Shown piece by piece: positions 12,886-64,000 of a stretch of DNA of 64,000 nucleotides; position 1 is the first letter of the stretch, and the number at the start of each line of letters is the position of its first letter. The stretch spans positions 62,001-126,000 of the forward strand of contig NZ_CP101415.1 in assembly GCF_024339025.1 (NCBI RefSeq), given 5' to 3'. Origin of the DNA: Mycoplasma bradburyae (lineage in GTDB: Bacteria; Bacillota_I; Bacilli_A; Mycoplasmatales; Mycoplasmoidaceae). A program made the translations under genes and the position numbers. A model generated the notes under the pieces. The model saw only the letters and a program-made list of their open reading frames with translations, was not told the origin of the DNA and searched no databases.

Positions 12886-15796
<2,911 letters not shown>

Positions 15797-15857
15797 CATA
15801 AAACATTAGTTGTTTTAATCATTATGATTTGTTGTATTTAGTTTTTCAAAGAGCGAT

Positions 15858-15966
15858 GTGTGTGATATCGATATCGTGATGGAAACACCTGGTCCCATTC
15901 CGAACCCAGAAGTTAAGCATCATGGAGCCGAAGGTAGCTTAGGTGAGAATAGGAAAATATCACGCA
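15858..15966 (+). rRNA. rrf: 5S ribosomal RNA
   Basis: The conserved core ACACCTGGTCCCATTCCGAA and the following GAAGTTAAGC are present, with terminal complementarity between GTGATAT near the start and ATATCAC at the end. The length of about 109 is normal for mollicutes. Ends are estimated. It is separated from 23S by about 60 bases with no tRNA. Confidence 0.93.
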
Positions 15967-47560: not shown

Positions 47561-50500
47561 ATGGCTTCTGATTGAACTTGATTAAAGAATCGACTTATTA
47601 ACGATAAAACTAAATCAAAGAGCTTTTGAATTGGTTCTACTAGTAGTTCTATAATGGATATTGCAGAATTACTAAAGGCTACTTCTAATATCTTTGATCT
47701 CTCAATAAAAGGGATCATTACATATCTTAATAGCAACGATCATTTAGAATTAGATTTAAAAAAACTAAAAGAATTATCTGATGAAGATGCGATGCGACTT
47801 TTTGAATTTGATAATTCTAGAGAATTGTATAAGTACTATACAAATGAATTTAGTAAGTTGCATAAAAAAATTAAGAAACAACAAAGAGAAACAGGTGATG
47901 CTTCATTATTTATTGGTTTGCCAATTATTGAAGGTTGTAACCAATGAGGTGATAGCTATAAAGCGCCGTTATTATACGCAGAAGTTGAATTAAAACAAGT
48001 TAATCAGTATCAAAAAATTATTTTATCAATCAATAGGTCAGAATTCTTAATTAACACAACAATACTTGCTGTTGAAACAAATAAGCGAGGAATCTTGTTT
48101 GAAAACAATTATGATCAATCGAAATTAGATGTTGATCAAGCAATTGAGATCTTTAGATCCTTAGATATTGGATTTAAAAAAATGCCAACGAACGAACTTT
48201 ATCGTTTTCAAAATATAACTAAAAAAGAGTTCGTTCAAAAATGAAGTGAAAATGGCGCTGTAAACAATATTTTAAATAATGTTGTTTTAGGTGTTTTTGA
48301 CGTAAAAGGCGATAAATTATTAAAAGATTTTACAGAAATATTGGTTAATGATCCAGGTGCTATTGATGAAACTTTTAATAATAAAAAAGACCTTTTATTC
48401 AACCACGAAAAGTTTGCTAATGAATATTCATTAAGTGATATTTATTTAGTATCGCATTTAGATTTTTATCAACAATTAGCTGTTAAACATGCTCTTGAAG
48501 GTGATGTTGTTATCGAAGGTCCTCCTGGCACAGGGAAGTCTGAGACGATCCTGAATATTTTAATTAATATTGCTCTTAGAAATAAAACTGCATTGTTTGT
48601 TACAGAAAAAGCGACAGCAATGGAAGTTGTATATAACCGTTTAGGAAAGTTTAAAAACCTGGCATTATACATCCCAAATTTAAACAAAGAAGCAGGTAAA
48701 TTTTATAGTCAGTTTTCTAATTACGAAAAATACTTTGTGGAAAACTATTATGATAATGTTTTAAACACACCACCTGCAAAGTTCGATAAAAACTACTTAA
48801 AACAGTATTATGAAATGTCGAACATAATCCAAAAAATATATAACTACGAAATCAGCTCAGGTGATTATAGTTATTCTTTCTTGAGTTTGATTTTAGGTTT
48901 TGAACCATTGGATGTTGAACATATTAAAATCGATGATTTTGTTCGATTTAATGATTGAGTGAGAACTTATACAAGCGAAGAGTGAATGGAAAAACATCGC
49001 GAGTATATTGCTTTATATAACGAAATTGATACCAAATGAAAAGCTAGTACTTTTTCTACATTTCTTAAGATTTATCAAAATGATCCAGATGACATCAGAA
49101 CACTGATGTATGCTATTCATCTATATGCTAAAAAAGGAATTGTTAAAGAACATTACCGTGTTCCTTTTTTATTCAAACCATATGAAAAACTGATTGAATC
49201 TTGCAAGTTGGTAACTCAACAGATTAATAGGTTTATTGAATTAGAACCATATAAATCTGAAACAACTAAAAGAACTATTCTAAAGAATATTGAAATTAAT
49301 ATTAAGAAACGTCAAAAAGAATATTTTAATTCTTGATATGTGCAAAATCATTCAGGCGTTTTTTTAAGTAAATTAAATTGAGCACAAAATGCTTTAGATG
49401 GTCTTCAAGAAAACTATACCTCTGATGTTGATGTTTATATTCAATCGTGTAAACGTAATCTTAAAGCTAAGATTATTAAAAACTTTTATGATCTTTACAA
49501 AGAAGATAAGAAGACATTGTTAGAAATTTGTCGTCAAGGACGTAATAAGATTTTTAAGAATATAAATTGATGATTCAATCTTAACCGTGAAAACATTATG
49601 CGGATGTTTAAAATTCACATAATGTCATTTGAAACAGCATCAATTTTACTTGAAAACCGCAAGGACTTGTATGATTATGTAATAGTTGATGAAGCTAGCC
49701 AAGTGTTTTTAGAAAGAGCATTACCATCGCTTTATCGTGCTAAGAATTATATTATTGCAGGTGATACCAAGCAATTACAACCAAGTAGTTTCTTCTCATC
49801 TCGTTCAGAATATGATGAAGTAGCACTTGATCATATTCCTGATGAAGAGTTAATTGAAGTTGAAGAATCAGTTAATGCAATCAGTTTAATTCATTTCTTG
49901 AAAGAAAGAAGCAGAATTAATGTGATGTTAAAGTATCACTACCGTTCGAATTTTGGTGATTTAATCGCTTTTACTAATGATCATATCTATGATAGTGAAT
50001 TGATCTTTATGAACAAAGCGATCAAACAAAAGAATTCTTTTATCGTTCATGATGTTATTAATGGTAAATGAAAAGATCGTAAGAACGTTGCTGAGGCTCA
50101 AGAAATCGTATCACGCGTTCAACGTTTAACTAAAACTGAAGATTACAAAAAAACTTTAGGTATCGTTGCTTTTAATAAAAATCAAGCAACCCTTATTGAG
50201 TTAATGCTTGATAAATTGAATGATCCATTAATCAATGAATGAAGAGAACGTACGAATGATAATGGTGAATACACCGGATTATTTGTTAAGTCGGTTGAAA
50301 ACGTTCAAGGGGATGAACGTGATATTATCATCTTCTCAATTGCTTATGACAAATCAGTAGTTAGTTATGGACCGATTAGTAGCACCACAAATGGAATTAA
50401 TCGATTAAATGTAGCAATCACCAGAGCCAAAGATCGCATTGAAATATTCAAGTCATCTAAAGCTAGCGAATATAATGGTTGAGGTTCGTCTTCACCAGGT

Positions 50501-50971
50501 TCTAGATTATTCGTAGAATATTTAGATTATTGCGAAAAGACCGCTAAAAACGATAACTTGCCAACATTTGATCGACAAACAATCGAGATTGAAGATAAAC
50601 TAAAACAAAAGCCTGATATTTTTGAAGAAGTTAAACAAACTCTTGAAAAAATGTTTGGTCAATATTTCACAGTTAAGAGAAATGTTGATAACGGATCATA
50701 CAACTTTGATTTCGTTATTTATTATGACGATATTCCGATACTAGTAATTGATTTAGATATCAAAGAATTCAAAGGAATGGCTGATTTTAGCGAAAACTTT
50801 GTTTATCGCAAAATCTTCTTAAAAAATCGTGGATGAGAACACTACACAATCTGATCTACCGAATGAAAACTTAATATGAAAAAAATCTTATTAGAGATTA
50901 AAGATATTCTCGATAAAGGAACTAGATCAATTCGAAAAGAAAATGAAAATTAATAATTATCTTTTAAGATA
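47561..50971 (+). CDS. Superfamily 1 helicase with C-terminal nuclease-like domain (MG140-like)
   Basis: The 1136-residue protein has SF1B helicase motifs: P-loop EGPPGTGKSE (about residues 319-328), motif II VDEASQVF (about 709-716), GDTKQLQPSSF, a Q-rich VENVQGDERDII motif and VAITRAKDRIEIF (motif VI). The last 110 residues (NFDFVIYYDDIPILVIDLD... and WEHYTIWSTEW) resemble the Vsr-like restriction-endonuclease-fold domain that ends many large bacterial helicases, though no full nuclease triad is certain. Position just before nusA-infB-rbfA corresponds to MG140. Many UGA Trp codons. The stop is TAA at 50969-50971, with the nusA promoter following directly. Role in DNA or RNA metabolism is unknown. 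Confidence 0.85.
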
Positions 50972-50984
50972 AAAATATTTTCTT

Positions 50985-50990
50985 GTATAA
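50985..50990 (+). promoter_or_regulatory. -10 box of the nusA operon
   Basis: TATAAT (50985-50990) with a weak TTAAGA (50963-50968) 16 bases before it, inside and just after the end of the helicase gene. Transcription would begin near 50997, upstream of the hairpin at 51011. Confidence 0.6.
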
Positions 50991-51010
50991 TTAAGATAAG
51001 AATTATGAAT

Positions 51011-51041
51011 AGCGACAACCCGAGGTTGTCGCTTCTTTTTT
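51011..51041 (+). terminator. Intrinsic terminator/attenuator in the nusA leader
   Basis: AGCGACAACC (51011-51020) pairs perfectly with GGTTGTCGCT (51024-51033) around CGA, followed by TCTTTTTTT. This is one of the best terminators of the window, yet it ends only ten bases before the nusA ATG and lies downstream of the TATAAT at 50985. It could end helicase transcription, or act as an attenuator in the nusA leader, which NusA itself could enhance. Confidence 0.8.
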
Positions 51042-51051
51042 AAATTAATTC

Positions 51052-52932
51052 ATGAGTGTTGATAATAAAAGTTTCTTAGAAGCAATCGAGACGGTTGCTC
51101 TATCTAAAAATATTTCTAAACAAGAAATAAGTTCAATTTTAAAAGATGCAATTATTAGAGCTTGCGCTAAAGAAGATCCAGATCAAAGAATTGATGTAAT
51201 GATTGATTTTGATTCTGGTTTATTAAAGATTTTTAAACTATATAAAGTAGTTGAAAATTCTATTAGCGAAGAAGAATTTGATGAAATTAACGAAATTCAT
51301 TTAAGTGACGCTTTAAAAACTAACCCAACAATTCAGGTTGGCGATGATTTTTTAAGATCGCTTAGCATTAGTGATTTATCAAGAGTAGTAGCTACTAATA
51401 TTTCGCAATATTTCCGTCAAAAGTTATCAGAATTAGTTAACAAACAAGCTGTATCTGAATGAACTCCTAAACTTAATAAAATTGTTCGTGGAACTGTTGA
51501 AAGAGATGAAAACAACCAAAACATTTTATTAGTTAATTTAGGCGGTATTTATGCTTATTATTACAAAAAAGATTGAGTTCCTAACGAAGAGTTAAAACCA
51601 GATGTTGAATATGATTTTGTATTAACTCAAATCAAAGAACAATCTAAGAGTTGACCACTTGTAGTATCGCGTTCAGACGCTAAATATGTACAACATATAC
51701 TAACTGAAAACATTCCTGAGATTAAAGAAGGAATTGTTGAAATTAAAGCGATTCAAAGAGTAGCTGGACAAAAAACTAAAGTTGCAGTTTCATCAAATAA
51801 TCCTGATATTGATCCTGTTACATTAATTTTAGGTGATGGCGGGATGCGAATTAAAACAATTGCAGCAAACCTAATTGAACACTCAGCTGGAGTTAAGTTT
51901 AGTAATGAAGTTATTGATATCTTCCACTGAAATGATGATGTATTTAAATTAATTGCTAATGCTTGTTATCCAGTTGATATCATCGGGATCGATGTTTTAG
52001 AAGATTCTGAAAGAGATAAAAGTGTTGATATTATTGTAGAAGATCAATATTTACCTTACTTAATTGGTAGAGCTGGTATCAATGTTAGATTATTATCTTA
52101 CATAACTGGTTGATCAATTGATTTTAAAGCTCACTCAGTTGCTATCGAAGATGGTATTAACATCGTTCCATTAAACTATTCGCCAATTAATAATTCAGTA
52201 TTAGCTGACCAATTTAAATTCAACAACAGAAGATCAAGAATTGCATCAAAACAACCATTCAAGAAAGTTGAAAAAATTCAAACTCCATTGGTTGCTTACT
52301 CAACAGCAGTTGAATCAGATGCCGATATTAAAGTTGATATTGATAGTATTTACACTGAACCACAAGAACAACGTTATGAAATGATTGACGTTAGTAAATA
52401 TCAACCAAAACCAATTTCAGACGAAGTATTAGATGAGAACTTGCCTATTGAAAGCTTCGATGAAATTAAACAATTCGAAGAATTTGATCCTTCAGTTATT
52501 GAACAAGAAAATAACGAAGAATTAATCAACGAAGAAGAGAATCAAGTTGATGTTGTTCAAGAACAACCTATTAAAAAACAATCTGATGATATTTCAGAAC
52601 AACTTGCAAATATAGATTTAGATCAATTATTAGAAGAACCTAATAATACTCAACAAGAACAAAAAGAAACTAAAGCTTCTAAGAAGTCTAAAAAACAAAA
52701 AGAAGAGATTCAAGAATCTGTTGAGTTTGTTGCTGTTGATGAATCAGCATATGATAACGTGAAAAATGACAATACATCAATTACCGAATTAATTCGCGAA
52801 ATCGATGTAACAGCAACACCAAAAAAAGAAATCAAAAAAGTTCTCCTTGTAGATGATAAAAAAGAAAAAGACAAGGATAAGAAAAAGAAGAAGAGCCAAC
52901 GTCAAAGCTTGGACAGCTTCGATGATCTATAA
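51052..52932 (+). CDS. nusA: Transcription termination/antitermination protein NusA with long acidic tail
   Basis: NusA binds RNA polymerase and nascent RNA, modulating pausing, termination and rRNA antitermination. The 626-residue protein has the N-terminal RNAP-binding domain (to about 135), an S1 domain (RGTVERDENNQNILLVNLGG) and two KH domains (ILGDGGMRIKTIAANL and YLIGRAGINVRLLSYI), ending near residue 390. Residues about 405-626 are an extra Gln/Glu/Asp/Lys-rich tail not found in Bacillus NusA. In Mycoplasma pneumoniae, NusA has been seen in cells between RNA polymerase and ribosome, so such tails may matter for coupling. UGA Trp codons are read. The nusA-rnpM-infB-rbfA order is standard; rimP is missing upstream. 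Confidence 0.95.
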
Positions 52933-52945
52933 TATTTAGCACGAA

Positions 52946-53215
52946 ATGAAAAACATTAGCCTACGACTTGATTTGATAAGTAAAAAACAATTTCCAAAAA
53001 ATCAATTGTTTCGAATCGTTTTTTATAACAATCAATTAATCATTGATCAAGAAAACAAAATTAAAGCTCGTGGCGTGTATTTTAAAAAAGACAATGAATT
53101 CAAAATCGATAAAAAGATCAAAGCTTTAATACAAAGAAGCTTTAAAACTAAGATATCAGAAGAACAATTTGAAAATCTTAGTAACGCATTAGAGAAACGA
53201 GGTCAATATGAATAA
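52946..53215 (+). CDS. rnpM: YlxR/RnpM family RNA-binding protein
   Basis: The 89-residue protein has the family pattern KNQLFRIVFYNNQLIIDQENKI-like followed by ARGVYFKKD, equivalent to the RV...GRGAYI core of YlxR, recently described in Bacillus as an RNase P modulator. The usual N-terminal RxCxxxR motif is not recognisable here. It lies between nusA and infB and overlaps infB by eight bases. Confidence 0.82.
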   Translation: MKNISLRLDLISKKQFPKNQLFRIVFYNNQLIIDQENKIKARGVYFKKDNEFKIDKKIKALIQRSFKTKISEEQFENLSNALEKRGQYE

Positions 53216-55055
53216 GAAACCGGCAAAAAATAAAAAACCATTTGATAAGAGATCTAAGATCAATATCAAATCTTACTTAAAAGAAGTTAAGGTTGGTGTT
53301 CAAGATGGAGTTTTTATTTATACAGACCCTTTAAGTATCGATCAGTTTGCTAAAAAAATTAACCAACCTGTTGCTAAAATTATTAAATACTTTTTTGCTA
53401 AAGGGATCAATACAATTAACTTAAATACGATTCTTTCTTTAGAACAAATTGGTGAATTGTGTTTAGAGTTTGGTCTTGATTTTAAGATCGAAAAAGAAGT
53501 AACAAATGAAAATATCTTAGATAATATCGAATTCAAAGATAAAAAAGAAGATCTAGTTAAACGCCCTGCAATTGTTACTGTAATGGGTCACGTAGACCAC
53601 GGTAAAACCTCTTTATTAGATGCCATTAGATCTACTAATGTAACATCTGGTGAAGCTGGTGGTATCACTCAACATATTGGTGCATACCAAGTTAAGAAAA
53701 ATAATGAATTAATTACATTTATTGACACTCCTGGTCACGAAGCATTTACCGAAATGCGTGCTCGTGGTGCTAATATTACTGATATCGTTGTTTTGGTTGT
53801 AGCTGGTGATGACGGTATTAAACCTCAAACAGAAGAAGCTATTGACCATGCTAAAAACGCAGGTGTTCCAATAATCGTTTTTGTTAACAAAATGGATAAA
53901 CCATCTGCTAATTATGAACGTGTTGTTCAACAGATCTCTAAATATGATTTATCACCAGAAGATTATGGTGGAGATACAATCTTTGTACAAGGTTCAGCAT
54001 TAAAAAATGAAGGTATTAACGAGTTATTAGATTCAATCCTTACATTAGCAGAAATTAATGAATATAAAGCTAATCCTAACGCAGATCCATATGGTATTGT
54101 TGTTGAATCTAAATTAGTTTCAGGGCTAGGTCCACAAGCTACTGTTATTATCAAGCGTGGAACTTTAAAAGTTGGTGACTATATCTGTATAGGTGCTGCT
54201 TTTGGTAAAGTTAGATTAATGCAAGATGAAAAAGGTAATAATATAACTGAAGCCACCCCATCAACACCTGTTAAAATTTCAGGTTTAGATAATGTGCCAG
54301 TTGCTGGTGAAAAATTCTTAGGTTTAGCTACTGAAAAAGAAGCTAAAGAATTATCAGAATCATATAAAATTAAACAACAAAAACAAAAACACCTAAGTTT
54401 ACAAGAAAGCCACGAAAAAAGAACGCGTGTTAACACTGATGGTCTTAAATGTATTGATTTAATTATTAAGTCAGATGTTCAAGGAAGTTTAGAAGCAATT
54501 AAATACGCGATTTCTAACATCAACATTGAAGGTGTTACTACGAATATTATTCGGGCTTCAACTGGAGCGATATCTGAAACTGATATTAAATTAGCTCAAG
54601 CTTCAAATTCAACTGTTATTTCATTTAATTTAGCAGTTTCTAAACAAATTAAAGATTTAGCTAGTTCATCAAACATCGAAATCTTATCTTATGAAATCAT
54701 TTATAAGATGGTTGAAGATCTTGAAAAGATCATGAAGGGTGAATTAGACCCAGTGTTTGAAGAACAAGACTTAGGTCAAGCAATCGTTAGAGCAATTTGA
54801 AAACACTCAAAAATTGGTACGATAGCCGGAAGTTATGTTCAATCTGGTAAAGTAGTTAAAAATGGATTATGTCGAATTATTCGTGATGGTGTTATTATCT
54901 ATAAATCTAAGATCGGTTCACTAAAAGTTAAAGAAAATTTTGCTGATAAAGTTGAAAACAATAAAGAGTGTGGAATTGTTGTTGAAAACTACAATGATAT
55001 TAAAGAAAACGATATTATTGAAATTTATGAAATTGTTAAAAAACGAGTGCAATAA
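53208..55055 (+). CDS. infB: Translation initiation factor IF-2
   Basis: GTPase that places initiator tRNA on the 30S subunit. The 615-residue protein keeps one IF2_N domain (DPLSIDQFAKKINQPVAKII) and the G domain: GHVDHGKTS (about 126-134), DTPGHEAF and NKMD. It also has the C-terminal initiator-tRNA-binding domains. It lacks the long N-terminal extension of enteric IF-2, as usual for mollicutes. One UGA Trp at 54798-54800. It overlaps rnpM by eight bases, and its TAA overlaps the rbfA ATG by one base. Confidence 0.96.
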
Positions 55056-55405
55056 TGAGTAATATTAAAACTTTAAGATTAGAATCAACAATTCATCGAA
55101 TTCTTAATAACGCAATTAGTTCAGAGATTGAAAATCGCTTGGTAAGAGAAAGTTCAATTACCTCAGTTAAACTATCACCAGACAAAAGTATAGCTAAAAT
55201 TTACATCGATTGTTTCATCCAAAAAAACATTGCCAAAACATTGCAAGCATACAAAGACGTTGCTGGTGTTTTTAAATTTATCTTAAGTAAAAAATTAACT
55301 ATAAGAAAAGTTCCGCAATTAGTTTTCTACCAAGATGAAAGTATTACAAATGGTATGAAAATAGATCGTATTCTTGCTGAAATTAAAGAAGAAGAACAAA
55401 AATAA
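55055..55405 (+). CDS. rbfA: Ribosome-binding factor A
   Basis: Small-subunit maturation factor with a KH-like fold. The 116-residue product begins with a helix LRLESTIHRILNNAISSEI and has ITSVKLSPDKSIAKIYIDCF and LTIRKVPQLVFYQDESI, typical of RbfA. Translationally coupled to infB (TAATG). Confidence 0.93.
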   Translation: MSNIKTLRLESTIHRILNNAISSEIENRLVRESSITSVKLSPDKSIAKIYIDCFIQKNIAKTLQAYKDVAGVFKFILSKKLTIRKVPQLVFYQDESITNGMKIDRILAEIKEEEQK

Positions 55406-56521: not shown

Positions 56522-57166
56522 ATGGATTTTAATAACCAAATAGTTATTATTGATAAACCTAAAAATATCTCTAGTGCTTTTTGTTTAAATATCTTCAAGA
56601 AAAAATTCAAGATCAAAAAAGCAGGTCATAATGGAACTTTAGATCCATTAGCTTCAGGAGTTCTAGTTGTCGGGACTGGCAATAAAACTAAAGTGCTAAA
56701 TGATCTTAATAAAGACGATAAACAATATTTGGTAAAATTAAAGTTTAATACTCATACCGATAGTTATGATTCACTAGGCAAAGTAATCAGAACTTCTAAT
56801 TATGTACCAACTCAAGATAAAATTAACAGTTATCTTGAGTTGTTTACTAATAAGACATTTTACCAAACACCACCGAAGTTTTCGGCGTTAAAAATAAACG
56901 GTGTAAGAGCGTATAAACTAGCTAGAAGTGATATTGAATTCGAAGTTAAAGAACGGTTAACAACTTTATATAAAGCGCGATTAATATCTTATTATGATGA
57001 TTATGCAGAGATCTTATTAGATGTTAAAAAAGGCTTTTATGTTCGATCATTTGTTGTTGATTTAGCTACTTATTTTGATACTACAGCAATGATGGTTGAA
57101 TTAATCCGAACCAAATCAGGTAAATATACTTTAAAAGATGTGATCGATTGTCGATTTAATAGATAA
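56522..57166 (+). CDS. truB: tRNA pseudouridine(55) synthase
   Basis: Makes pseudouridine 55 in the T loop of tRNA. The catalytic Asp is D41 in AGHNGTLDPLASGVLVVGTG, and the YXVxxxFG-like and RSGxF-like (GFYVRSFVVDLA) motifs follow. At 214 residues it lacks the C-terminal PUA domain of the 300-residue enzymes. Its 3' end overlaps the start of the ribF-mnmA fusion by 29 bases if the ATG at 57138 is used. Confidence 0.93.
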   Translation: MDFNNQIVIIDKPKNISSAFCLNIFKKKFKIKKAGHNGTLDPLASGVLVVGTGNKTKVLNDLNKDDKQYLVKLKFNTHTDSYDSLGKVIRTSNYVPTQDKINSYLELFTNKTFYQTPPKFSALKINGVRAYKLARSDIEFEVKERLTTLYKARLISYYDDYAEILLDVKKGFYVRSFVVDLATYFDTTAMMVELIRTKSGKYTLKDVIDCRFNR

Positions 57167-59108
57167 GAACCTAAATCAAATTAACAAAAATGTTGATTTG
57201 GTAATTGGTTATTTTGATGGAATACATAAGGGACATTTAAAGTTATTTAATTCATCAGATAACTTTAATGTTTTAACGTTTGATAATGTTCCTAAAAAAC
57301 AAAAACTATTATATTGTCGAAAAGATAGCATAGAACAAATTGCTAACTTAACTAATGTTAAGCAATTATTAGTTTATGATGTATTAAAAAACAATTTAAC
57401 CGCCCAAGAGTTTATTGATACTTATTTAAAGATAATTAATCCTAAACGGATTATTGTAGGTTCTGATTTTAAATTAGGTAGTGATCAAGCTGATTACAAT
57501 TTATTAATTAAAAATGGTTTTGAATTAGTAGTTATCCCAAAAAACGATTGTAGTACTACCAAGATTAAACAATTGATTTTGAATCAAAAGATTCAAAATG
57601 CTAATCAATTATTAGTTTTACCTTTCTATCTAAAAGGTGAAGTAATTCAGAATAACAAACGCGGTAGAACAATTGGGTTTAGAACTGCTAATATTAAAAT
57701 TGATGAACATCTAATTGATTTGATTGAAGGTTCATATATTTGTAATATTATTCTTGACGAACAAAAATATCAAGGGGTAGCTTTTATTGGAAAACCTAAA
57801 ACTTTCAACGAAGAATCAAGACAATGCGAAGCGCATATCTTTAATTTTAACCAAGATATTTATGGTAAAAACATCAAAGTTGAGATCCTTAAATTTATTC
57901 GTCCTACTACTAAATTTAATTCATTAGATGAATTAAAACAAGCAATCGAACAAGATAAAAAAAATGCATTAAATTATTTTAATAGCCAACCAAAAGAAAA
58001 AGTTATCATCGCATTATCAGGCGGGGTTGATTCAGCTGTTTGTGCTTATTTATTAAAACAACAAGGTTATGATGTCTCAGCAGCTTTTATGCAAAACTGG
58101 GATAGCGATATAAACCTTGAATTGTTGCGCAATAACCAAGATGATAAGATCCAAGGATGTGATGCTAAACAAGATTATGAAGATGCTAAAAAAATCTGTG
58201 AGCAACTAAACATTGAACTTCATTATTTCAATTTTGTCGAACAATATTGAAATGACGTCTTCTTAAAAATGCTAGAAGATTACAAAAAGGGGCTTACTCC
58301 TAATCCAGATGTTTTATGTAATCAATTTGGTAAATTTGGTTGATTTATTAATGCGCTTAGAAACAAATTTGGTAATGATATCAAAATTGCCTTTGGGCAT
58401 TATGCAAAACTAGAAACTAAAAACGGAGAACCGTTTTTAGTTCATACTAACGATCATAATAAAGATCAAACATATTTCTTAACAATGCTTAATAAAGAAC
58501 AATTAAGAAATATTATATTTCCTTTAAGTGATTTAGATAAACCGACTGTAAGAAAGATTGCTCAAGAAGCTAACCTTTATGTAGCTACTAAAAAAGATTC
58601 TACTGGTATCTGCTTCATTGGTGAGCGTAATTTTAAGAACTTCTTGTCTAATTATTTAAAGATCAACAAAGGTCCTGTTGTTTTAATTAATGAAAACAAA
58701 ATAGTGGGAGAACATGACGGATTGTATTTTTATACAATCGGTCAATCTAAACGTTTAAATGTTGGTGGAACTAAAGAAAAAATCTTTGTTTGTAACAAAG
58801 ATTTATCCACAAACACTTTATATGTTTGTTATGAATCAACTAAGGATCGGTATTTAGCTTCTGAATCTTGTGAGATATCAAACTTTAATTGATTAATTAA
58901 TGATAAAGAAGGTTTATTAAATAAAAAACTTTATATTCGTTTTAGACATCGTCAAAAACTTCAAGAATGCGAAATTGTTTCGTATGATAACGATAAAGTT
59001 GTCGTTAAATATGAAAAACAAATTGCTGTAACCTTAGGGCAATACGGTGTTATATATGATCAAAACCTATGAGTTGTAGGTGGTGGTAAGATTACCAAAA
59101 TTAATTAA
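57138..59108 (+). CDS. Fused riboflavin kinase/FAD synthetase and tRNA 2-thiouridylase (RibF-MnmA)
   Basis: One frame of 656 residues carries three activities. FMN adenylyltransferase: [10 protein letters not shown] at 24-33 and [10 protein letters not shown] near 105-114. Riboflavin kinase: [11 protein letters not shown] at 175-185. MnmA: P-loop ALSGGVDS at 292-299, first catalytic Cys C394 in PDVLCNQFG and second Cys C492 in STGICFIG. The linker (residues about 275-287) contains no in-frame ATG, GTG or TTG that would start a separate MnmA, and no stop codon. UGA Trp codons are read at 58248, 58343, 58890 and 59069. ATG 57138 is chosen because it gives the usual 20-odd residues before GxFDGxHxGH; TTG at 57198 is the alternative. 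ribF after truB is standard; the attached mnmA is not. Confidence 0.9.
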
Positions 59109-60471: not shown

Positions 60472-63400
60472 CTAAATCTTAATGTCTAAAAATTCATCCA
60501 GACTATAAATTTTTTCTGTATCGTCGTTAGCCGAATTCTTTTTGCTAATCAATTTACATAAAGTATTAAATGTGTCATTATGAATACTTTTATAGACATT
60601 AAAATCACAAACAACAAAGAAATATTGTTTTGCTCTTGTTACGGCCACATTTATTAGGTTAGGTTCTTTTACTACTCATTTAGCAGCGCCAGAACTTTTT
60701 TTATTAACACCCAACATTAAAATTACGACTTTAGCTTCTTTACCTTGAAAAGTATGAACAGTACCACAGCTAATATCTTTTAAGTATTTGTTATATTTTA
60801 TTTTAGAGCTGACTTCTTTAAATGGTGATATTATGAAAATATCTTTGTTGCTTATCGTTGAATCTTTATTATCAGGGAAATTTTTGCTATCTGCTAAAGA
60901 GCAAATTTCTTTAATTTTATCGATAATTTTAGGTAAATTATTTATTTGTCTTTCAACATTATGACCCTTAATATCTTCACCAGGTATATTTATAATACAA
61001 CTAGGGTTGAAAGTTGAATCCTTTGTAACTTTAACCATCTTTCCGTTGTAAGATATTTCATTTGATATAGAAAACATGGGATTGTCACATCTTCTATGAA
61101 CTCATAGAGGTAGACCTTTTATAGAGTTTTTTCTATTTTCGTTTTTATTGTAGTAATTAGATATTCTATCAACAAATGTTTGTACTGATAAATCAGGGTT
61201 AAAATATTCATCATCTAAAGATTCGTTTTGTTTAATTCATTTTTGAATATAGCTATCTGTTGTTAGAACAGGCTTTATCTGATCAGGGTCACCAACAACT
61301 ATCACTTTGTTAGCGCACATTAACGCTCCTACTAAAGATCAAGGAACTGCTTGACCAGCCTCGTCAACGAATGCGTACCTAATCTTAGTCTTAAGATCAT
61401 CGTTAATGCCACCTTCTTTATTATTAGTAATGTTATTATGGTTTATTTTTGCGTAAATATTTTTAAAACTAGCAAAAGTAGAGCTCGTTATCGGGAAAAT
61501 GAAACGAGATAAATGATAAAATCCATCTTTTCTGCAATTTTTAGCGTCGAAATAATCTACATATTTACAAATAAATTCTTTTTTGAATTTTAGCGCTCTA
61601 ACAAATAAAAGCATTCTCAAAGAATTTATAATTTCGTTTGAATAAGGATTGTCTTTTTGTTTTTCTTCTCTGTTTATACTTTTATCATTATAGTTATATT
61701 CAGTTATTAAAAGTTCTAAATTGTTAATATCAATCAGTTTAATGGAATCATTATTTAAATATTTATTGAATGCGTTTTTATACAACTGGAATAAATTATT
61801 TATTTTCTTATTTAATTTTTCTAAAAAATTAAATAAACGATCAGCATTTTCTTTCTTGATAGAAAGAATCTTATATTTCTTTGTTTTAAATAATCTTGAG
61901 AAAAAACTACTTGAATAATCTTGATTTAAATGCTCAATTTTTGGTTTGAATTGATAACCATCTTTTACTTTTTTTAATCTAGATAAATTATTTAATTCTT
62001 CAGTTATATTTTCAGTTATTTCCGTAAAAAAATCGTTTATTTGCTTGTTTTTTTGATATTTTAGATATTCGTATTTTATAAAATCGTTATAAGTTTCTTT
62101 TTTAGAAAAACCATTTTTTACAATCTTAAATGAACCTATCACTTCGCGATGCAATTCATTAATTTCTTTTACGGATGATAGCAACTCATTAAACGCTGTT
62201 CTACTATTTTCAAATCTTTTCTCATTTTCATTTTTCTTGCACCATTGAATGATTGAGTTATATAATTCTTCAAGCCTTTTTTCCTTTTTACCACTTCCTC
62301 CTTCTAACGAAATTTGACCAAAGGTTATTTTATTAGATTTATTGCAAGAACCATGACTTGTTTGATTTTTATTAACATCCTTAAAATAATCAAGTTCATC
62401 TTTTAAAAAATCTGGTAAATCATCAGGGATTAAAGGTAATTCATTAACAATATTTTGAACAGCGCCATTATTAGAGCTTAATACTAGAATTTGATTATTA
62501 TTGTTTCTAATCAATTCTCTAATCTTATTTTCTTTATCTTTTATATTTTCTAAATTAAGGCTCTCTTTACTTAATAATTTGGCTTGTTCGCAAATTATTT
62601 CAGCAAAAATATCCTTAAGCAGGGTAGTCTTTCCTGTTCCTGGAGGTCCATTAACACTTCAAATATCATTAACGATATTTTCCGATTTTTGTTGAACGCT
62701 AATATTGATTGCTACTTGTTGCATCAAAGTTAAATTATATTTAGGATTACCGATAAATTTAGCTTTAGGATAAAATTCAGGATTAATAAATTTTTCTAAA
62801 TTTTTTTGAAACTCTTCATTAGATTTATCGTTATTTTCATCTTCAAAAAAGTTATATTTTTCCTCTTTATCTGATTCATTAATACCTAGATATCTTTCTA
62901 GGTTTTTCGGTATATTTCATCTATTTTCTTTATTGTTAATTAAATTGATTGCATCTAAAATAATATCTAAATAATAACTTTGCTGTCTATATCTAAAATA
63001 AGGAAATTCTTCACCCTCTTTAGGTTCAATATATCAATATTTTTTCTTATCAATATTGGATTCTAAATGAAATTTATTATTTAATAAGTGTTCTAATAAT
63101 TCGTTTAATAAAACAGGTTCTTTATTTTCGTATTTATCGAGTAATTCGGATTGAATCTCTTTTAATTCTTTCTTATATTTATCGTATTCTTCTAATATAT
63201 CAATATTTTCTCTATCTTCTTTAATTTTAGTGGCTATATAAGATGCGAAAGAAATAAAAAAATCATTTTTATAAGTAGAAAAATTTAAAACATATATAGA
63301 ATTATCTGAGTTATCCTTTTCATTAATTTTTATTTTTAAAAAAGGGTCCTTAATTTTATCGCCTTCCTTATACTTATTTAAGAAAATGTATCCTAAATAA

Positions 63401-63714
63401 TAATGTTTCGAATCGCTATTATTATCGAATAATTTTGAAATTTTACATATTTCGCAATATTCGTTTTCTTCGTTATCTGGTTTATCAAGCTCGCACTCGC
63501 ATTTTTTCTTTAAATCAAATTTACTTAAAACATCGGTTTTATAATTTAATTCACCAAAGAAAATGAATAATTCATTTTGATATTTTTTTATTGTGGAATA
63601 ACCATTTTTAAGTTCGAAAGGTATTGTTTGTTTATCATTTTTATCAAAACATGGTAAACTCATAATTTCATTACAAAATCACGCTCTTAAAAGTTTAGTT
63701 TTTTCGTTATTCAT
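60472..63714 (-). CDS. Large superfamily 1 helicase with N-terminal cysteine cluster
   Basis: The 1080-residue frame is continuous with UGA as Trp; I checked the joins for true stops. The N-terminal third has C-x-C at residues 72/74 and C-x2-C at 87/90 (likely a zinc ribbon) and no other known motif. Helicase motifs follow: P-loop GPPGTGKT at 356-363, a 400-residue charged, coiled-coil-like insertion, motif II FVDEAGQAV near 782-790, VVIVGDPDQIKPV, TFQGKEAKVVIL and NVAVTRAKQYFFVV. The layout is that of Upf1/DNA2-like enzymes. Base composition is markedly more A+T rich than in the neighbouring core genes, with many Lys/Asn/Ile codons, suggesting an accessory or acquired gene. Related large helicases occur in anti-phage systems, but no partner gene is in the window. 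It starts 30 bases upstream of the CoA-transferase gene's own start region, on the same strand, but is read before it. Confidence 0.82.
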
Positions 63715-64000
63715 ATTTTTATAACTACCCAACCTATAAAATATTAGTTCTATCTATTTTATTAAGTAATAAACTATAAGTTTATTTATATTAAATATAC
63801 AAAATATCCATAAAAACATTCAATTAAATTAAAAATAAATTTAAATTAACTAATTCTTTGTTATAGATCTATTTATGGAATTAATAAAATAATTTATCTA
63901 TAAAACAACCTTAAAACATTATTAATCATCCTTTAGCTTATAAAGCACATAAATCATTTAAATATTAGATGTATTTCGATTTATCGCAAAATTAATCTAT
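63715..64000. other. A+T-rich region at the window edge
   Basis: No open reading frame of note. It presumably contains the promoter of the helicase gene that reads leftwards from 63714, but no convincing -10/-35 pair was found. Nothing else is seen. Confidence 0.6.

What the first reader, a model, noticed from the sequence alone, without database searches (positions are those of the whole stretch)
50985..51051. nusA leader holds a promoter followed by an intrinsic terminator: possible NusA autoregulation
TATAAT at 50985, a perfect GC-containing hairpin with a T tract at 51011-51041, and the nusA ATG ten bases later. NusA enhances pausing and termination at hairpins in other bacteria, so excess NusA could shut off its own operon, which also includes infB and rbfA. 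The ribosome binding site is squeezed into the T tract region, so translation would also be affected.
Basis: partly seen in the sequence, partly recalled or inferred. Interest (0 to 1): 0.62.

Follow-up and report, generated by a model that had tools for sequence, protein, structure and literature searches.

The report
Leader terminator controlling the nusA operon
Just in front of the gene for the transcription factor NusA, this mycoplasma carries a start signal followed almost at once by a stop signal, a brake that is kept in most of its relatives and that probably lets NusA limit its own production, as is already known in Bacillus subtilis.

Summary
The 98-nt gap before nusA contains TATAAT (50986-50991), a perfect 10-bp hairpin (51011-51033), a T tract (51034-51041) and the nusA ATG at 51052. 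Chance does not give this, and the upstream gene's terminator is not the explanation. Most relatives have the same promoter-hairpin-T tract-ATG order with different stem sequences (61 of 71 nusA leaders, 59 with a -10 box). In several relatives the upstream gene points away. tuf and pheS leaders have none.

The element follows nusA, not rimP. It precedes rimP where rimP heads the operon (12/12), and precedes nusA where rimP has moved (7/7 before nusA, 0/7 before rimP). In the window's family rimP is undetectable (0/60). All 26 scored rimP leaders from other orders of the class have it.

It is therefore the mollicute form of the known rimP/nusA leader attenuator. In B. subtilis NusA-stimulated termination in the leader limits NusA, and in Streptococcus agalactiae termination was mapped 31 nt after the start. 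NusA as the effector here is inferred. The remark about a ribosome binding site in the T tract is not supported. New variant of a known kind; the relocation with nusA and the drifted stem are the new points. Moderate interest.

The parts
50964..50969 (+). -35-like TTAAGA (weak), 16-nt spacer to the -10 box
   Evidence: weak match, inferred
50986..50991 (+). -10 box TATAAT of the nusA operon promoter; inferred start near 50998
   Evidence: a -10 box precedes the hairpin in 59 of 61 hairpin-bearing relatives
51011..51033 (+). terminator hairpin AGCGACAACC-CGA-GGTTGTCGCT, 10 bp, -15.1 kcal/mol
51034..51041 (+). U tract TCTTTTTT (inferred point of termination about 51040, released RNA about 43 nt)
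   Evidence: T is 52-80% at +1 to +7 after the hairpin across 61 leaders
51005..51043 (+). 12-codon ORF (MNSDNPRLSLLF) through the hairpin; not conserved in length or frame, probably incidental
51052..52932 (+). nusA (626 aa, NusA_N and KH_5 domains)
   Evidence: Pfam; NusA match in 59/59 relatives
52946..53215 (+). ylxR, second gene of the operon
   Evidence: Pfam
53208..55055 (+). infB (IF2)
   Evidence: Pfam
55055..55405 (+). rbfA
   Evidence: Pfam

Best explanation
The element is a promoter-proximal transcription attenuator of the nusA-ylxR-infB-rbfA operon. RNA polymerase starts about 7 nt after TATAAT, near 50998. It transcribes a hairpin that begins about 14 nt from the 5' end, and either stops in the U tract, releasing an RNA of about 43 nt, or reads through into nusA. 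NusA most likely sets the ratio by stimulating termination at this hairpin, so that high NusA lowers its own operon (negative feedback). It descends from the rimP leader attenuator of Bacilli: rimP is no longer detectable in this family and the brake now lies directly before nusA. Shown here: anatomy, conservation, the U tract, independence from the upstream gene, and linkage to nusA rather than rimP. Inferred: promoter use, termination in vivo, and NusA as effector.
For: Hairpin present in 61/71 nusA leaders, 59 of them with a -10 box a median 13 nt upstream. T is 52-80% at +1 to +7 after the hairpin and 16-30% at +10 to +14, although hairpins were chosen without a T criterion. Upstream gene divergent in G020 (ABC_tran), G017 (Hexapep), G151 (Na_Ca_ex), G203 (TrmK) and G010 (RecU). 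Controls: tuf 0/21, pheS 0/19; dnaK 6/20 hairpins, which are CIRCE repeats. rimP undetectable in 60/60 family genomes. rimP next to nusA: hairpin before rimP 12/12, before nusA 0/9; rimP displaced: before nusA 7/7, before rimP 0/7; other orders of the class 26/26. NusA-stimulated termination in the leader is established in B. subtilis (PMC12288461). S. agalactiae shows a short and a long RNA from one start, with termination 31 nt downstream (PMC4448216). M. gallisepticum has no Rho (PMC4245973).
Against: No RNA 5' or 3' end data could be read for this species; the supplementary tables of the M. gallisepticum study were out of reach. The -35 is weak. The hairpin is strong, and B. subtilis NusA-dependent terminators tend to have suboptimal hairpins and interrupted U tracts (PMC8060035), so this one might terminate without much help. 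The hairpin was not found in the presumed hemoplasmas tested (g5, g6), in G028, or clearly in f8.
Confidence: 0.8

Rival explanations
1. The hairpin is just the terminator of the upstream helicase gene (ends 50953), which happens to lie after the nusA promoter.
For: The upstream gene is co-directional and ends 57 nt before the hairpin; intrinsic terminators exist in M. gallisepticum (PMC4245973).
Against: The -10 box lies between the upstream gene and the hairpin in nearly all relatives. Upstream genes differ and several are divergent. It stays with nusA or with rimP as operon head.
Confidence: 0.05
2. A real leader attenuator, but the signal is not NusA: another operon product (IF2, RbfA, YlxR), translation of a short leader ORF, or growth-dependent RNA polymerase speed sets termination.
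For: A 12-codon ORF runs through the hairpin (51005-51043), and other short ORFs start near there in its closest relatives. infC has a similar leader in the same genome.
Against: Leader ORFs differ in length and frame among the closest relatives, and only 16 of 59 leaders have any ATG between the start and the hairpin. The NusA mechanism is established in B. subtilis at the orthologous operon (PMC12288461).
Confidence: 0.12
3. A 5' hairpin that stabilises the mRNA or tunes translation, with little real termination.
For: The hairpin begins about 14 nt from the inferred 5' end; one predicted fold pairs part of the nusA start codon.
Against: A U tract directly after the hairpin is conserved. Start-codon pairing is weaker or partial in the nearest relatives. 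Orthologous leaders do terminate (PMC4448216, PMC12288461).
Confidence: 0.05

Closest known systems
rimP-leader attenuator (Naville and Gautheret 2010, PMC2965389)
   Same: Terminator in the leader of the rimP/nusA/infB operon, no evident antiterminator, 4-130 nt before the first gene; NusA named as best candidate regulator.
   Different: rimP is undetectable here and the terminator sits directly before nusA; the conserved GGGc...gCCC stem motif is missing in this stem and in nearly all mollicute stems examined.
B. subtilis NusA autoregulation by attenuation (Mondal 2016, as summarised in PMC12288461)
   Same: Leader intrinsic terminator upstream of nusA, negative feedback.
   Different: The leader here is about 54 nt against about 180 nt before rimP in B. 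subtilis (PMC2965389); NusA dependence not tested in mollicutes.
S. agalactiae gbs0413-0418 leader (PMC4448216)
   Same: Very short terminated RNA from the operon's own start (termination 31 nt downstream), NusA feedback proposed.
   Different: rimP is part of that operon and the leader is that of the rimP-nusA-infB operon, not of a nusA-first operon.
E. coli metY-nusA-infB autoregulation (as cited in PMC2965389 and PMC4448216)
   Same: NusA represses its own operon.
   Different: Different promoter and operon layout; mechanism not compared here.

Membership tests
rimP-leader attenuator | Lies in the 5' leader of the operon that holds nusA and infB, after the operon promoter | tested here: met
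rimP-leader attenuator | Hairpin directly followed by a U stretch | tested here: met
rimP-leader attenuator | Conserved GGGc...gCCC motif in the terminator stem (PMC2965389) | tested here: not met
   The stem is AGCGACAACC/GGTTGTCGCT; a GGG...CCC pattern occurs in only 4 of 61 mollicute hairpins; outgroup rimP leaders mostly have AGAGTGGG...CCCACTCT
rimP-leader attenuator | rimP is the first gene | tested here: not met
   RimP_N not found in 60/60 genomes of the family; nusA is first
rimP-leader attenuator | No competing antiterminator structure | tested here: inconclusive
   None evident in the leader of about 54 nt; no alignment-wide test made
NusA autoregulation by attenuation | NusA increases termination at the leader terminator | not testable with these tools
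   needs in vitro transcription or NusA depletion
NusA autoregulation by attenuation | Terminator linked to nusA | tested here: met
   7/7 before nusA and 0/7 before displaced rimP
Leader-peptide attenuation | Conserved short ORF overlapping the terminator | tested here: not met
Terminator of the upstream gene | Present only behind a co-directional gene | tested here: not met
   divergent upstream genes in at least 5 genomes

The most novel reading that the evidence does not exclude
In Rho-less, genome-reduced mollicutes the nusA leader is one of very few leader attenuators left, and it works without the conserved stem motif through a hairpin formed only about 14 nt from the 5' end, so that NusA acts by generic hairpin and U-tract stimulation rather than by recognising a sequence; the released RNA of about 43 nt, or ribosome entry on the short leader ORF in the M. 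gallisepticum-like clade, adds a second input.
Probability: 0.15. Interest if true: 0.6.

Novelty: new variant of a known kind. Interest (0 to 1): 0.42.

Why it matters
Mollicutes have few known regulators. A conserved minimal attenuator that follows nusA when rimP is lost or moved points to NusA dosage, not RimP, as what the most widespread bacterial attenuator controls. It also shows that the conserved stem motif can be lost while the device is kept, which is testable in a purified system.

Tried and rejected
Rfam: no match at gathering in the window apart from rRNA and nothing relevant up to E = 10 in mollicute leaders. The outgroup rimP leaders gave no match either, so Rfam says nothing for or against. 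Upstream-gene terminator: rejected. Leader peptide: not conserved. Start-codon sequestration: inconsistent among close relatives. Formal covariation in one subclade of five hairpins: 93.8% of cells paired, 2 pairs changed on both sides, too few sequences to weigh much; an earlier attempt used a mis-registered structure and is void. The search for related loci returned only Mycoplasma imitans. The 2016 NusA paper and the E. coli feedback paper are not held.

Full report
What is there. The window comes from a mycoplasma that reads TGA as tryptophan: a 971,445-bp genome, nearest named relative in the collection M. imitans, NusA 88% identical. A helicase gene ends at 50953 and nusA begins at 51052. 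The 98-nt gap holds TATAAT at 50986-50991, a perfect 10-bp hairpin at 51011-51033, TCTTTTTT at 51034-51041, then ten bases and the ATG. The operon is nusA-ylxR-infB-rbfA by Pfam. From the -10 box the start should be near 50998 (inference), so the hairpin begins about 14 nt into the RNA and the leader is about 54 nt. For comparison, the commonest 5' UTR length in M. gallisepticum is about 15 nt, and its typical terminator stem has five A-T and two G-C pairs (PMC4245973).

More than chance. None of 20,000 shuffles of the spacer gave such an element. The hairpin is -15.1 kcal/mol against a mean of -3.1 in dinucleotide shuffles. In the whole genome, read in stretches, I called 715 ORFs. Eleven had a -10-like hexamer, a hairpin with T tail of -8 kcal/mol or better, and an ATG in order. 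In most of these the upstream gene's stop abuts the hairpin, or the -10 box touches it. nusA stands out, with a 6/6 -10 box 19 nt upstream. The next clear case is infC (IF3), whose leader is separate from any upstream gene.

Conservation. The same order of parts precedes nusA in 61 of 71 genomes of the window's family and two other families. Median hairpin energy is -15.6 kcal/mol; 59 of the 61 have a -10 box, with a median gap of 13 nt. Stem sequences are unrelated between genera, yet the stems pair. Hairpins were picked without regard to what follows, but T is 52-80% at positions +1 to +7 and 16-30% at +10 to +14. That is the signature of a terminator rather than a bare 5' hairpin. Controls: tuf 0/21 and pheS 0/19; dnaK gave 6/20 hairpins, which are the known CIRCE repeats.

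Not the upstream gene's terminator. The -10 box lies between the upstream gene and the hairpin. In at least five genomes the upstream gene points away: ABC transporter, hexapeptide transferase, Na/Ca exchanger, TrmK and RecU, by Pfam.

It follows nusA. RimP_N was not found in 60 of 60 genomes of the family, while 10 of the 14 control genomes rang. In other families that keep rimP next to nusA, the hairpin precedes rimP in 12/12 and nusA in 0/9. In genus g22, where rimP lies far away, it precedes nusA in 7/7 and the displaced rimP in 0/7. These genomes are related, so the seven are not seven independent events. In 26 of 26 scored rimP leaders from other orders of the class, the promoter-hairpin-T tract-rimP order is present, 25 with a -10 box, mostly with the stem AGAGTGGG...CCCACTCT. 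The simplest history is that the ancestral rimP leader attenuator came to lie before nusA when rimP was lost or moved, and its stem sequence then drifted.

Mechanism. In B. subtilis NusA-stimulated intrinsic termination in the leader limits transcription into the gene (PMC12288461). In S. agalactiae RNA-seq shows a short and a long RNA from one start, with termination 31 nt downstream, and the authors proposed NusA feedback (PMC4448216). [quoted passage not shown] mycoplasmas are not named there. M. gallisepticum has no Rho. I therefore assign the same feedback here. Promoter use, termination and NusA dependence are inferred. A caution: the hairpin is strong, and NusA-dependent terminators in B. 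subtilis tend to be suboptimal with interrupted U tracts (PMC8060035). The U tract here has one early interruption (TCTTTTTT).

Other readings. A 12-codon ORF runs through the hairpin (51005-51043). Close relatives have leader ORFs of other lengths and frames, and only 16 of 59 leaders have any ATG before the hairpin, so leader-peptide control is unlikely. Pairing of the nusA start codon is predicted for this sequence but is weaker or partial in its nearest relatives. No ribosome binding site is visible in the T tract.

Verdict. A real, conserved attenuator of a known kind. By strict membership it fails two features of the rimP leader (rimP as first gene, GGGc...gCCC stem motif) and meets the positional and structural ones, so it works like that family and is best called a variant of it.

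Noticed in passing
window 57138-59108 (+): RibF (FAD synthetase and riboflavin kinase) and MnmA (tRNA thiolation) form one ORF of 656 aa; the fusion is present in the four nearest relatives (G001, G003, G004, G009) and not in the other genomes searched.
   Followed up: partly
genome G000 C1 complement of about 499844 (outside the window): infC (IF3) has a similar promoter-hairpin-T tract leader, the only other clear leader terminator in this genome; compare the known L20 leader control of infC operons (own knowledge).
   Followed up: partly
window 47561-50953 (+): 1130-aa protein with DUF4011, AAA_11/AAA_12 helicase and weak MTES_1575 nuclease-like domains, directly upstream of nusA; possibly a defence gene.
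   Followed up: no
window 60472-63732 (-): A second large AAA_11/AAA_12 helicase (1086 aa) near the first.
   Followed up: no
window 12887-15965 (+): 23S and 5S rRNA genes with no 16S rRNA match anywhere in the window, so the 16S gene seems not to be linked.
   Followed up: no
g22 genomes, e.g. G052, G097, G107: rimP has moved away from the nusA operon and shows no leader terminator there.
   Followed up: yes
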